From the NCBI RefSeq assembly GCF_000744095.1, contig NZ_JQLI01000008.1:1550001-1614000 (forward strand): DNA of 64,000 nt, given 5' to 3'. Shown piece by piece: positions 2,359 through 5,479 of this stretch (position 1 is its first letter; every line of letters begins with the position of its first letter). The translations under genes were made by a program, and so were the position numbers. The notes under the pieces are model-generated. The model saw only the letters and a program-made list of their open reading frames with translations. It was not told where the DNA came from and ran no database searches. This DNA comes from Cupriavidus necator A5-1. GTDB taxonomy: Bacteria > Pseudomonadota > Gammaproteobacteria > Burkholderiales > Burkholderiaceae.

Positions 2359-2452
2359 GGAGACGTGGCCGAGAGGTCGAAGGCACTCCCCTGCTAAGGG
2401 AGCATCTGGGCCAAAACCTGGATCGAGGGTTCGAATCCCTCCGTCTCCGCCA
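2359..2452 (+). tRNA. tRNA-Ser (anticodon GCU)
   Basis: The acceptor arm pairs GGAGACG (2359–2365) with CGTCTCC (2442–2448). A discriminator G and an encoded CCA end at 2452. The anticodon stem CTCCC/GGGAG frames the loop CTGCTAA, giving anticodon GCU for AGC/AGU codons. A long variable arm and the T-arm GGGTTCGAATCCC are present, as in class II serine tRNAs. The gene is intact and is the attachment site of the adjacent genomic island; the T-arm 3' strand onward is duplicated at 46961. Confidence 0.97.
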
Positions 2453-2562: not shown

Positions 2563-2889
2563 ATGTACCTCACCCGCCGAGACGGCATCTACTACCTGCG
2601 CAAGCGGGTGCCGGTTGACCTCATTGCCGTCTATGGCAAGCGAGAAATCCTGCGCAGCCTGAGGGTCAAAGACAGAGGCGCCGCCGTCCGTCTCGCTCTA
2701 CGCGCTGTCGTTGCGCTGGACGATGAATTTGCACAGAGGCGTGACCTGACCCCGCCTTCTGTTGAACGGGCGCAAGCCTCGCAGCCCACCCCATCCATGT
2801 CGGCCCGGCCACCGAGCCAATCCGCTCTTCCAAATCTAAGCAAGCCTACGCATCGCTGATGGCGACGTCTTTGCAGATTTGGACGCGCG
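2563..2889 (+). pseudogene. island integrase, N-terminal part (broken)
   Basis: This is the start of a tyrosine recombinase of the type that opens MYLTRRDGIYYLRKRVP and targets tRNA genes; the N-terminal part is a DNA-arm-binding domain. The frame from 2563 stops at 2859. The likely homologous continuation (ASLMATSLQIW at about 2850–2882) lies in another frame, so a frameshift falls in the linker around 2770–2830. An IS607-family element then interrupts the gene near 2889/2890. The remainder resumes at about 5040. Its position directly after attL identifies it as the integrase of this island. It can no longer make a full protein. Confidence 0.85.
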
Positions 2890-4377
2890 GTCACCAACCC
2901 GAGCGCGCGGTAACGCGCGCATTCGCTGCCGGTACTCCGGCAGGCGCATTGAATTCACATTGGCGCCCCCTCTCGGGACTCCCGTCCATCCTTGCGGATG
3001 GAATCGCCAATCACACCGCCCGATAGTCTGAACGGGGCCCGAGCAGGGCAGATGGGAGCAGTCCACAGCGTCGCCGACTTGCGTCAGCAGCCGCCGCAGA
3101 CCGTTTTGACAGGCATTCTCGTCGCGCAGGTGGCAGGTGCCGCAGCCCGGGCAATCCCACTCCCGAATTGCGGGCGCTATCCCGCCCTCGACAACGTGAC
3201 CACACGCATGGCACGTTCGCGTGGTGCCGGTTTCATCCAGCACCAGCGCATGCTTTCTGGAGCGCGTCGCGACCCACGAGACAATGTCCTTGAATGCACC
3301 GTGCATCGTTCTGTTTCTTACCGCGCGGTTGTATTTGCGGCCCTTGCCGTGGTTGGTGTTCTCCGGCACGTAGTTGCCGATCCCAATCACGTCGTAGTGC
3401 CTGCAGAGCTGGTTCGCCAGCGAATACATGAAGTGCTTTTTCTGTTCTCGCACTTTGGTTTGCATTCGCTCCACAGCGTCGTCCAAACTCTTCCAGCGGC
3501 GACTGGGACGCCAATGCGTCGACACCGTGCCATCGCCGTGGACGGTATCTACCCACAGCGACTTTGCTATGCACCGGTCACGCAGACTCGTTAGCCGATC
3601 GAGAATGCGCTCCGACTCCTTCAACTTCTCAAGATTGGACAATTCGAAGGCGCGCCCCTCAGTATCCAGAGCGTAGCCAAAGTTCTTCAGGTTCGGATCG
3701 ATGTAGACCACGCGCGTGCCGCGTTGCCTGGCCTTCTTCTGCCCCTTGAACGTGAACACAGCGAAATAGCGGTCGCGGCCCTCGCGGACGATCCGGCAAG
3801 TGCGAGCGCTCGCGATCTCCTTGGGTGTCTTCTCCATCTTCAGGCGCAGCGACAGCCGCTGTCCTTGCGCGTTCGCGCCGAACGACAGGTTGAGCCAACC
3901 GAACTGGGAAACATTCCAGCCTTTGCCTGGCTCGTCGTATTCCAGGCTCATCCAGTGCTTGGCCCATGCCTTGTACTTGACCCAGCCCACGTCTGGGCCG
4001 CAGCGCTGTCCGTTCTTCGACTTTCGATGCGAGGCAATGGCCTTGGCCATGCGCAGCGCGACATTCTTCAGCGGTGAAGAAAACACGCAGCGCAAGAACG
4101 GATGACGCTCCTTGAGCGGCGGCACGAGGTTGCGAAGCCCGATCTCGGAATAGACCTCCGACAGGAGCTTCTTGGTTCGCGCCTCATCAAGATAGCCATA
4201 GCCGCCGACGATGGACAACTCCGCCATGCGCGTCTCGACTTCGTCCTTGAGTCGATTCCATAGCCAGTTGCAGATTTTGGATTGCCCGTCGAGCTTGCCC
4301 GCAGCATCAGCGTCCACCACCAGACGGACCTTCCTCGCGAACTGGATAGTGGTGGGATCAGCCCTCTTGAATGGCAT
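2836..4377 (-). CDS. tnpB: TnpB RNA-guided nuclease of IS607 element
   Basis: A 513-residue TnpB protein, the transposon nuclease related to Cas12. RuvC-I aspartate is D227 in VVYIDPNLKNFG. RuvC-III aspartate is D419 in LRDENACQNG. A zinc finger is formed by C389/C392 and C409/C412. At the RuvC-II site the sequence is IGIGNYVPEN, with Gly334 where most family members have the catalytic Glu; Glu382 before the zinc finger could substitute, as proposed for TnpBs with a rearranged site. The start overlaps the tnpA stop by 20 bp. The last ~60 codons coincide with the hairpin array and run about 18 codons past the inferred element end, so the C-terminal tail is probably not conserved. It keeps donor sites occupied by cutting empty sites; activity here is unproven. 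Confidence 0.88.
   Translation of the reverse strand: MPFKRADPTTIQFARKVRLVVDADAAGKLDGQSKICNWLWNRLKDEVETRMAELSIVGGYGYLDEARTKKLLSEVYSEIGLRNLVPPLKERHPFLRCVFSSPLKNVALRMAKAIASHRKSKNGQRCGPDVGWVKYKAWAKHWMSLEYDEPGKGWNVSQFGWLNLSFGANAQGQRLSLRLKMEKTPKEIASARTCRIVREGRDRYFAVFTFKGQKKARQRGTRVVYIDPNLKNFGYALDTEGRAFELSNLEKLKESERILDRLTSLRDRCIAKSLWVDTVHGDGTVSTHWRPSRRWKSLDDAVERMQTKVREQKKHFMYSLANQLCRHYDVIGIGNYVPENTNHGKGRKYNRAVRNRTMHGAFKDIVSWVATRSRKHALVLDETGTTRTCHACGHVVEGGIAPAIREWDCPGCGTCHLRDENACQNGLRRLLTQVGDAVDCSHLPCSGPVQTIGRCDWRFHPQGWTGVPRGGANVNSMRLPEYRQRMRALPRARVGDRASKSAKTSPSAMRRLA
2890..3060 (-). ncRNA. probable omega-RNA scaffold of the IS607 TnpB
   Basis: Read on the minus strand, three consecutive 18-nt hairpins with 7-bp perfect stems and tetraloops occur at 3002–2985 (loop GCAA, a GNRA type), 2943–2926 (loop AGTA) and 2920–2903 (loop TTAC). 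They lie inside the 3' end of tnpB and stop just before the inferred element end, where the guide segment of a TnpB omega-RNA should begin. In TnpB systems the guide RNA overlaps the 3' end of tnpB and reads into flanking DNA; here the guide would come from the integrase sequence below 2890. The 5' limit is a guess. Confidence 0.6.
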
Positions 4378-4999
4378 CTGCAGCCTCTTTCAGGGCTTTC
4401 ATGGCGTGACGATTCTTGTGGGAACGGCTGCCATAGAGGCGCGCCGAAAAGACGGTAATGATCTCAAGCACGTCGCAGGCAAGATCCTCCTCATACGTCG
4501 AATCGCCTTTGGCATTGATGATGACGACTTCCGTTCCGAATTGCTCGCACAGAGCAAAAACGAGCTCTGCACCAAATCGCAAGAGCCGGTCCTTGTGTGT
4601 GATGACAAGCCGATCAACGCCTCCGGCACAGATACGTTTGAGCAGTTGCTTGAGGCCCTTCTTCTCATAGTTCATGCCGGAGCCGAGATCCCGGATGAGT
4701 TCGAAGGGCCATCCCTTCGCAGCGCAGAACGACTCCAGCACCTGGCACTGACGCTCCAGATCGGCCTTCTGGTCGTGGCTGGAAACGCGCGCATAGGCGA
4801 GCGTAGTACGCCCGCGCTCTGCTTCCTCGACCTTCTTGCCGGCCAACTCCATTAGAGCGGTCAAATTATAGCGACGATGACCACCCGGAGTCCGATCGGC
4901 GGAGATCTTCCCGTCGAGCTCCCATCGGCGAAGCGTGCCAGGGTGGATGCCCAGCATCGCGCACGCCTCCTTCATCGTAACTTTAGCAAGTATGCTCAT
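4358..4999 (-). CDS. tnpA: IS607-type serine recombinase transposase
   Basis: A small serine recombinase of 213 residues that moves the element. The N-terminus is a MerR-like helix-turn-helix (MKEACAMLGIHPGTLRRWE, then TPGGHRRY). The catalytic domain follows with YARVSS (nucleophilic serine around residue 73) and a conserved RLLRFG patch. I chose the ATG at 4999; an in-frame ATG at 5017 would add six residues. It overlaps tnpB, so the two are co-translated. Intact as far as can be seen. Confidence 0.92.
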   Translation of the reverse strand: MSILAKVTMKEACAMLGIHPGTLRRWELDGKISADRTPGGHRRYNLTALMELAGKKVEEAERGRTTLAYARVSSHDQKADLERQCQVLESFCAAKGWPFELIRDLGSGMNYEKKGLKQLLKRICAGGVDRLVITHKDRLLRFGAELVFALCEQFGTEVVIINAKGDSTYEEDLACDVLEIITVFSARLYGSRSHKNRHAMKALKEAADAIQEG

Positions 5000-5039
5000 G
5001 GGGGATAATAATTGCACACCTATAAGCAGTTTACAAGGG

Positions 5040-5479
5040 GCTGCTCACTTGCCCCACCGACAAGACCGCTGACGCGGTAGCCCGCGCCGTAGCCGAGGTC
5101 GGGAACCCTCATGTAGCGACGCTAACTCGCACAACTGTGGCCGGGATGCGGGACATCTGGCTGGAGAAGGGCAACAGCGCTGCTACCGTGTCGAAGAAGG
5201 TCGGCTTTATCCGCCTGCTGCTGACCGTGGCGCGCAATCGCGGTCTTATAGACACCAACCCAGCCGAGGGAATGGAGTTGCGCCCCGACCCCATTGAACT
5301 GCGGCAACCGTTCTCGCCGGAACAGACACAATCCATCCTCGCCGCAACGGCGAAGTACCGGGACACCGAGCCCGTCAAGTATTGGGTTCCCCGGCTAGGC
5401 CATCTCACAGGCGCTCGCTTGAATGAACTGTGCTAGCTTCGCACCTCAGACATCATCGTCCGTGAGGGTAGCTTCGAGT
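5040..5479 (+). pseudogene. island integrase, central part (broken)
   Basis: The tyrosine recombinase resumes after the IS607 element. The core-binding domain (TADAVARAVAEVGN through DTNPAEGMELRP) is followed by the start of the catalytic domain, including the first catalytic arginine in LTGARLNELC. A TAG codon at 5434–5436 interrupts the frame; homology-like sequence continues beyond it (LRTSDIIVREG), so it is a nonsense mutation, probably from CAG. The frame then runs into the truncated benE sequence near 5480. The HxxR and Tyr catalytic residues are missing altogether, so the protein cannot recombine DNA. Confidence 0.85.

What the first reader, a model, noticed from the sequence alone, without database searches (positions are those of the whole stretch)
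2890..3060. Hairpin array overlapping tnpB 3' end: probable omega-RNA with guide from the integrase
Three hairpins with identical architecture (7-bp stem, tetraloop) sit in a row inside the tnpB 3' end and stop at the inferred transposon border. The first has a GNRA loop. This is the expected layout of a TnpB guide RNA, and the predicted guide is the integrase sequence running down from 2889 on the minus strand.
Basis: partly seen in the sequence, partly recalled or inferred. Interest (0 to 1): 0.65.

Follow-up and report, generated by a model that had tools for sequence, protein, structure and literature searches.

The report
Transposon guide RNA inside nuclease gene
A mobile DNA element in a Cupriavidus-like bacterium carries what looks like the guide-RNA scaffold of its own RNA-guided DNA-cutting enzyme, written inside the last part of that enzyme's gene; the kind is known, but the element ends and the guide begins about 68 bases further on than first read.

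Summary
The three 7-bp tetraloop hairpins are real (2903-2920, 2926-2943, 2985-3002): 0 of 20,000 dinucleotide shuffles and 49 of 20,000 peptide-preserving codon permutations have three or more. They lie in an IS607-type tnpA-tnpB element, and a TnpB guide (omega) RNA is the best reading. The border and guide are wrong, however. All 16 own-genome copies examined end at 2822, not 2890, so the guide should start at 2821. Hairpin 2926-2943 is letter-identical in the three lineages, 2985-3002 stays paired in the two that can be compared, and 2903-2920 is not conserved. Third codon positions of codons 447-484 are unusually conserved (30/38 versus 220/432), so RNA constraint probably overlies the reading frame. 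The TnpB has a rearranged RuvC-II site; relatives of 60% identity or more were found only in Cupriavidus. Ordinary in kind, moderately interesting as a lineage. There are no RNA or cleavage data, and covariation support is thin.

The parts
2822..5055 (-). whole IS607-type element: left end GGGGCAAGTGAGC at 5055, right end ...GGAAGAGCGG at 2822
   Evidence: 13 own-genome copies with an intact left end and all 16 examined for the right end stop at the same base, with different flanks
4358..5017 (-). tnpA, serine recombinase transposase
   Evidence: NCBIfam NF033518 IS607 transposase, 218.6 bits against cut-off 110; Pfam Resolvase and MerR
2836..4377 (-). tnpB ORF, 513 codons, stop codon 14 bases before the element end
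   Evidence: NCBIfam NF040570 guided_TnpB, 104.5 bits against cut-off 100; Pfam TNB domain. Predicted triad D227, E382 (alternative), D419 read
2923..3039 (-). codons 447-485 of tnpB: RNA-constrained core of the scaffold
   Evidence: third codon positions of codons 447-484 identical 30/38 versus 220/432 in codons 1-432, window against C39
3016..3035 (-). predicted 5' hairpin CCGUUC/GGGCGG, 8-nt loop
   Evidence: RNAalifold consensus of window and C39; one U-A/U-G change
2959..3011 (-). predicted junction: stem AUUGGCG (3011-3005) with CGCCAAU (2965-2959), enclosing the GCAA hairpin; the inner mini-hairpin (2984-2974) is read by eye
   Evidence: outer stem paired in window and C39, one G-C/G-U change; RNAalifold places the small inner helix elsewhere
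   Evidence: 7 bp in window; 6 bp in C39 with U-A changed to U-G and the outer U-A lost; this one forms in 2598 of 20,000 peptide-preserving permutations
2926..2943 (-). hairpin CUGCCGG-AGUA-CCGGCAG
   Evidence: letter-identical in window, C39 and IDO lineages; forms in 416 of 20,000 peptide-preserving permutations
2903..2920 (-). hairpin GCGCGCG-UUAC-CGCGCGC
   Evidence: real here, not conserved: a 6-bp hairpin of other sequence in C39 (1252 of 20,000 shuffles give 5 Watson-Crick bp there), nothing comparable seen by eye in IDO
2822..2890 (-). 3' terminal stem-loop: CCGC (2890-2887) with GCGG (2825-2822), internal loop, CCAAAUCU (2882-2875) with AGAUUUGG (2837-2830)
   Evidence: same architecture in the minimum-energy folds of all three lineages; inner pair 4 is A-U, G-C, G-U
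2802..2821 (-). predicted guide, first 20 nt of right flank, antisense to the interrupted integrase gene
   Evidence: first variable base after the right end; GG plus these 20 nt has no other match with up to 3 mismatches in the own genome
2533..2821 (+). 5' part of interrupted integrase gene
   Evidence: Pfam DUF6538 E 2.3e-18
5056..5436 (+). continuation of interrupted integrase gene (itself ends early)
   Evidence: Pfam Int_N E 0.0039, below its cut-off

Best explanation
The hairpins are part of the omega-RNA (reRNA) scaffold of an IS607-family TnpB. A minus-strand transcript through tnpB would cross the element's right end at 2822 into the flank. The last ~220 nt of the element (about 3040-2822) fold into a 5' hairpin, a junction carrying the GCAA hairpin, the invariant AGUA hairpin, a variable hairpin and a terminal stem-loop that closes with the element's last bases. 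TnpB would bind this scaffold, probably after 5' processing of its own mRNA as shown for other TnpBs, and use the next ~16-20 nt (2821 downward) as guide. It would cut an element-free copy of the insertion site so that the element is copied back. Shown here: exact ends, copy number, hairpin excess, third-position constraint, shared structure. Inferred: transcription, processing, TnpB binding, guide length, cleavage.
For: Exact ends: right end identical in 16 of 16 own-genome copies examined, left end in the 13 where it is intact, flanks different. Hairpin excess over dinucleotide shuffles (0 of 20,000) and over peptide-preserving permutations (49 of 20,000). Third positions of codons 447-484 30/38 versus 220/432 (Fisher p 0.001); same codon at identical residues (M and W left out) 23/30 in codons 447-485 versus 155/293 in 1-432 (p 0.013), above the best of 393 other 39-codon windows, 0.71. 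AGUA hairpin identical in three lineages and terminal stem-loop of one shape in each. A stem-loop within 10 nt of the scaffold's 3' end is described as apparently the only consistently conserved omega-RNA feature (PMC10278001, section 13 read); here 8 nt separate the stem from the guide. The reRNA of another IS607 TnpB, ISXfa1, crosses the right end and keeps the fixed junction base as scaffold (PMC10711439, section 25 read). Catalytic residues D227, E382 and D419 are retained in window and C39; the IDO fragment covers only D227.
Against: No RNA, binding or cleavage data. Only three diverged lineages, one covering just the 3' half, so covariation is thin: on the full alignment RNAalifold found 3 double-sided changes among 67 pairs with a slightly unfavourable covariation term (+0.68), on the core 0 of 34; its full-length consensus uses partly different long-range pairs. 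Rfam gives no guide-RNA match. Hairpin 2903-2920 is not conserved. The core also codes for a conserved peptide, and the GCAA hairpin alone is formed by 13% of peptide-preserving permutations. No target-adjacent motif is visible in 18 left flanks (largest column 0.35 bits), so how the element's own right junction escapes cutting is unexplained.
Confidence: 0.87

Rival explanations
1. The conserved block is simply a conserved C-terminal peptide of TnpB (GPVQ.IGRCDWRFHPQGW...MRLPEYRQR), and the hairpins are a by-product of its codons in a G+C-rich genome.
For: 32 of 38 residues identical in codons 447-484; similar ...RR.A ending and stop position in three lineages; with the peptide kept and synonymous codons permuted, one or more such hairpins arise in 3998 of 20,000 draws, and the GCAA hairpin at its place in 2598.
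Against: Three or more hairpins in only 49 of those 20,000 draws; third positions nearly as conserved as first and second there (30, 34, 34 of 38) against 51% elsewhere; the terminal stem-loop shared by three lineages lies largely in the diverged tail and past the stop codon; one C39 copy carries a frameshift downstream of the block.
Confidence: 0.08
2. The inverted repeats are DNA sites: transposase binding or end-synapsis sites rather than RNA.
For: IS607 ends carry short directly repeated motifs (PMC6188088, passages seen); the terminal stem-loop contains TGCGTAG-type repeats whose inverted form is in the left end of C39, with shorter shared 6-mers in IDO.
Against: In the window none of the four 6-mers shared between left and right end falls in the three hairpins, which lie 81-181 bases from the right end.
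Confidence: 0.04
3. The hairpins form a transcription terminator.
For: Strong G+C-rich stems at a gene end.
Against: No terminator-like site on either strand in 2700-3250; no U run; the stems lie inside the ORF.
Confidence: 0.01

Closest known systems
IS607-family TnpB with reRNA, ISXfa1 (PMC10711439, sections 23, 25 and 26 read)
   Same: tnpA serine recombinase plus tnpB; reRNA overlapping the right end and running into the flank; fixed junction bases as last scaffold bases; several stem-loops
   Different: this TnpB lacks the canonical RuvC-II glutamate (which arrangement ISXfa1 has was not looked up); the pseudoknot shown for ISXfa1 was not established here (CCGC in the GCAA hairpin and CCGC at 2890 could both pair with the terminal GCGG)
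IS607 TnpB with RAGATH-18 reRNA, ISFba1 (PMC11061315, sections 5, 6 and 10 read)
   Same: IS607 association; a scaffold of comparable length (187 nt) upstream of a 20-nt guide
   Different: no RAGATH-18 match here; the ISFba1 RNA starts 13 nt after tnpB, whereas here the scaffold lies mostly inside the ORF
TnpBs with rearranged RuvC-II, and pro-Fanzor/Fanzor enzymes (PMC10278001, PMC10711439)
   Same: canonical glutamate replaced (G334), alternative glutamate E382 seven residues before the first zinc-finger cysteine; D-P at RuvC-I
   Different: RuvC-I is DPN, not DPG or D-hydrophobic-G; proteobacterial; no tree was built

Membership tests
IS607-family insertion sequence | MerR-type DNA-binding domain ahead of a serine recombinase domain in TnpA | tested here: met
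   NF033518 218.6 bits; MerR at 14-50, Resolvase at 73-208
IS607-family insertion sequence | tnpB downstream of tnpA in one element with exact ends, GG at both | tested here: met
IS607-family insertion sequence | insertion at a GG dinucleotide with no duplication | tested here: inconclusive
   of 14 sites searched, 6 had a spanning empty relative among the loci fetched; 4 show four bases between the flanks (GGGG/AGGG/GGGA, GCGG/CTGG, CGGG/GGGA, GGCG), 1 shows three, where GG alone was expected; L021 (17 bases) could not be aligned and was dropped
TnpB RNA-guided nuclease | RuvC D-E-D triad and zinc finger | tested here: met
   D227, E382 in the alternative position, D419, four cysteines; canonical E replaced by G334; NF040570 above cut-off, NF038280 IS607_TnpB below its cut-off. 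Catalysis not tested
TnpB omega-RNA | structured RNA overlapping tnpB 3' end and element right end, stem-loop within 10 nt of the guide | tested here: met
   by sequence and prediction only
TnpB omega-RNA | RNA made, bound by TnpB and guiding cleavage | not testable with these tools
   needs RNA sequencing and nuclease assays
RAGATH-18 reRNA | match to the Rfam model | tested here: not met
   on 2780-3200 the only match up to E 5 is an unrelated viral family at E 4.2
Fanzor / pro-Fanzor lineage | DPG at RuvC-I together with alternative glutamate | tested here: not met
   alternative glutamate in window and C39, but DPN instead of DPG in all three lineages

The most novel reading that the evidence does not exclude
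A Cupriavidus lineage of IS607 elements has taken up a TnpB with a rearranged RuvC-II site and a long C-terminal reading frame that runs through nearly the whole omega-RNA to 14 bases before the guide, so one DNA stretch is at once peptide code, guide-RNA scaffold and transposon end. Its target would be a G-rich four-base site replaced on insertion, and the element's own right junction (GCGG) would escape cutting because it lacks the G run of the target (against this, 7 of 8 empty relatives of one site read GCGG).
Probability: 0.15. Interest if true: 0.55.

Novelty: new member of a known kind. Interest (0 to 1): 0.36.

Why it matters
It gives exact ends, a guide position and a scaffold model for a TnpB lineage far from those with solved structures (by sequence only the RuvC part matches; best natural TnpB E 1.2e-11). 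The element is multicopy and 98.5-100% identical over its near-full copies in one genome, so probably recently active. It also corrects a guide call that would have sent a laboratory test to the wrong sequence. If confirmed, it is a test case for how a coding frame and a guide RNA share one sequence, and for how an IS607 element avoids cutting its own junction.

Tried and rejected
Border at 2889/2890: rejected, every copy read continues to 2822. RAGATH-18 or another Rfam RNA: no match. Terminator: none found. G220 contig-end hits at 51-55% identity: another, ordinary TnpB family, not used as relatives; the two G365 stretches likewise. TnpBs of Thiodictyon, Hydrogenophilus, Microcystis and Stanieria, whose TnpA is 58-64% identical to this one: their TnpBs are 371-424 aa and align to this one at 19-26% over 130-257 residues, so no help for the RNA. 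Near-DNA search of plasmids: no match. Viral contigs: nothing. Genome-contig scan: one partial relative. AlphaFold with two sequences: mean pLDDT 41.8, not used. Within-genome variation: the 239-nt right end has 7 distinct forms in 17 copies (G261's included) with 5 variable positions, none in the three hairpins, so no covariation there. MAFFT alignment of the terminal stem-loops did not line the stems up and was not used for counts. Literature: searches (Cupriavidus, IS607, TnpB; IS607, TnpB, Ralstonia) found 0 papers; one search (Cupriavidus, IS607) found 1, seen only in the listing. These cover the open-licence library only.

Full report
What was checked. The finding places three hairpins in the 3' end of a minus-strand tnpB and infers a transposon border at about 2890 with a guide running down from 2889. 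Three perfect 7-bp, 4-nt-loop hairpins are there, at 2903-2920, 2926-2943 and 2985-3002. In 20,000 dinucleotide shuffles of 2890-3060, none had three, 1 had two and 347 had one; 64 kb hold 8, three of them here. Because the stretch is coding, a second control kept the peptide and permuted synonymous codons within tnpB: 49 of 20,000 draws had three or more, and the three hairpins formed at their own places in 2598 (2985-3002), 416 (2926-2943) and 797 (2903-2920) draws. On the transcript strand the loops are GCAA, AGUA and UUAC in that order. The region folds better than shuffles (z -2.5).

The element and its ends. The own genome holds 17 matches to the region: 14 near-full copies, two 3' fragments, and a 37-base piece that belongs to a split copy. 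Sixteen loci were read. In 16 of 16 the right end is ...GAGCGG at the base corresponding to 2822, followed by a different flank each time; in the 13 copies with an intact left end, that end is GGGGCAAGTGAGC at 5055. So 2889-2822 belongs to the element and cannot be a guide, and the first variable base is 2821. The only match to GG plus the first 20 flank bases in the own genome, with up to 3 mismatches, is this junction. TnpA is an IS607 transposase. The element interrupts an integrase gene next to a tRNA.

The protein. TnpB scores just above the general guided-TnpB model and below the IS607-TnpB model. Against ISDra2 TnpB structures the canonical glutamate is replaced by glycine (G334), while a glutamate (E382) stands seven residues before the first zinc-finger cysteine, the alternative position described for Fanzors and some TnpBs (PMC10711439, section 23 read). 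That the ISDra2 residue aligned to G334 is its catalytic glutamate is recalled. RuvC-I reads DPN in all three lineages. The four TnpBs read next to related IS607 TnpAs outside Cupriavidus are 371-424 aa, keep the canonical glutamate, and align at 19-26% over 130-257 residues.

How widespread. At E 1e-20, 3 of 398 family genomes match, own genome included and one of them by a fragment. In the genus, 15 of 60 match at E 1e-6, but beyond those three only by short C-terminal stretches of other TnpBs. In the class, 8 genomes besides the own match at E 1e-8 among 369 searched, over at most 249 residues. Of 72,556 plasmid records 603 match, one at 60% identity or more (C. necator C39 plasmid p1, 67.6%); 7 records cover 80% of the query, the other six being archaeal at 23-25% among the rows listed. 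Genome contigs give 1 partial locus, viral contigs none, phage records 81 matches, all below 60% and none covering 80%. So close relatives were seen only in Cupriavidus.

Three lineages of the right end. C39 carries three copies, ending ...CTGGAAAGCGG. The IDO genome's element is broken over contigs; a covariance model built from window and C39 found its 3' part at the edges of two contigs (E 3.2e-4, model positions 88-122), both ending ...TTTGGAAAGCGG before different flanks. The model's strong hits elsewhere are the copies it was built from or near-identical ones (16 in the own genome, 1 in G261, 3 in C39); one further G220 match is weak (E 0.32). Over 398 family genomes, 3 have a match at E 0.01.

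RNA constraint. Between window and C39 (68% amino-acid identity) third codon positions agree at 220 of 432 in codons 1-432 but at 30 of 38 in codons 447-484 (window 3039-2926), close to first and second positions (34 and 34 of 38); codons 433-446 and 486 onward are largely diverged. Same-codon use at identical residues is 23/30 in codons 447-485 versus 155/293 (p 0.013), above any of 393 other 39-codon windows (best 0.71). The peptide is conserved too, so protein and RNA constraint overlap and are not fully separated.

Structure. Hairpin 2926-2943 is identical in all three lineages. Hairpin 2985-3002 is kept in C39 with one U-A to U-G change and loss of the outer pair (IDO not covered). Hairpin 2903-2920 is replaced by a different, weaker hairpin in C39, where 1252 of 20,000 shuffles give as many Watson-Crick pairs, and I see none comparable in IDO. 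The best-supported addition is the terminal stem-loop at 2890-2822: CCGC pairs with the last four bases GCGG, then an internal loop, then CCA...UGG. Each lineage's own minimum-energy fold has this shape (3, 1 and 5 of 500 mononucleotide shuffles fold as well), and the fourth inner pair is A-U, G-C and G-U. MAFFT did not align these stems column by column, so the comparison was made by position from the ends. RNAalifold on the full alignment gives 3 double-sided changes in 67 pairs and a covariation term of +0.68, on the core 0 of 34. This is modest support. A stem-loop within 10 nt of the scaffold's 3' end is reported as apparently the only feature consistently conserved among diverse omega-RNAs (PMC10278001, section 13 read).

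Mechanism. By analogy with ISXfa1, whose reRNA crosses the right end and keeps the fixed junction base as scaffold (PMC10711439, section 25 read), and with TnpBs that process their own mRNA (PMC10278001, passages including the abstract), the scaffold would be about 3040-2822 and the guide 2821 downward. Cutting an empty site would favour copying the element back. None of this was measured.

Open points. No target-adjacent motif shows in 18 left flanks. Fourteen sites were searched for empty relatives. Six had a spanning match among the loci fetched: four show four G-rich bases between the flanks in most relatives (L013, L014, L016, L077), L015 shows three, and L021 (17 bases) could not be aligned and was dropped; eight had none. 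GG alone was expected from IS607 work (PMC6188088, passages seen). If GG alone were the motif, the element would cut its own right junction.

Verdict. A new member of a known kind, with an unusual TnpB lineage.

Noticed in passing
L013, L014, L016, L077 (and L015) against L108-L140: Empty insertion sites carry four mostly G-rich bases (three at L015) where the occupied site suggests only GG, so two target bases seem replaced on insertion; unexpected for an IS607 element.
   Followed up: partly
L018 and L022 insertion sites: In related genomes the two flanks of these sites lie roughly 0.75-0.9 kb apart, suggesting deletions next to the element.
   Followed up: no
L024 (G000 contig C1, about 2529746-2533986): This copy's left end is split off by about 2 kb of other DNA, apparently a nested insertion.
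   Followed up: no
L080:2951-5281: One C39 copy has a one-base difference in a G run that frameshifts the tnpB tail while the element ends stay intact.
   Followed up: partly
L071-L074: A second, ordinary TnpB family is multicopy in the IDO genome; its copies share one end (...GACGGAACGG by eye) before different flanks.
   Followed up: no
window 2359-2449: A tRNA gene directly upstream of the interrupted integrase gene suggests an old integrative element at a tRNA site.
   Followed up: no
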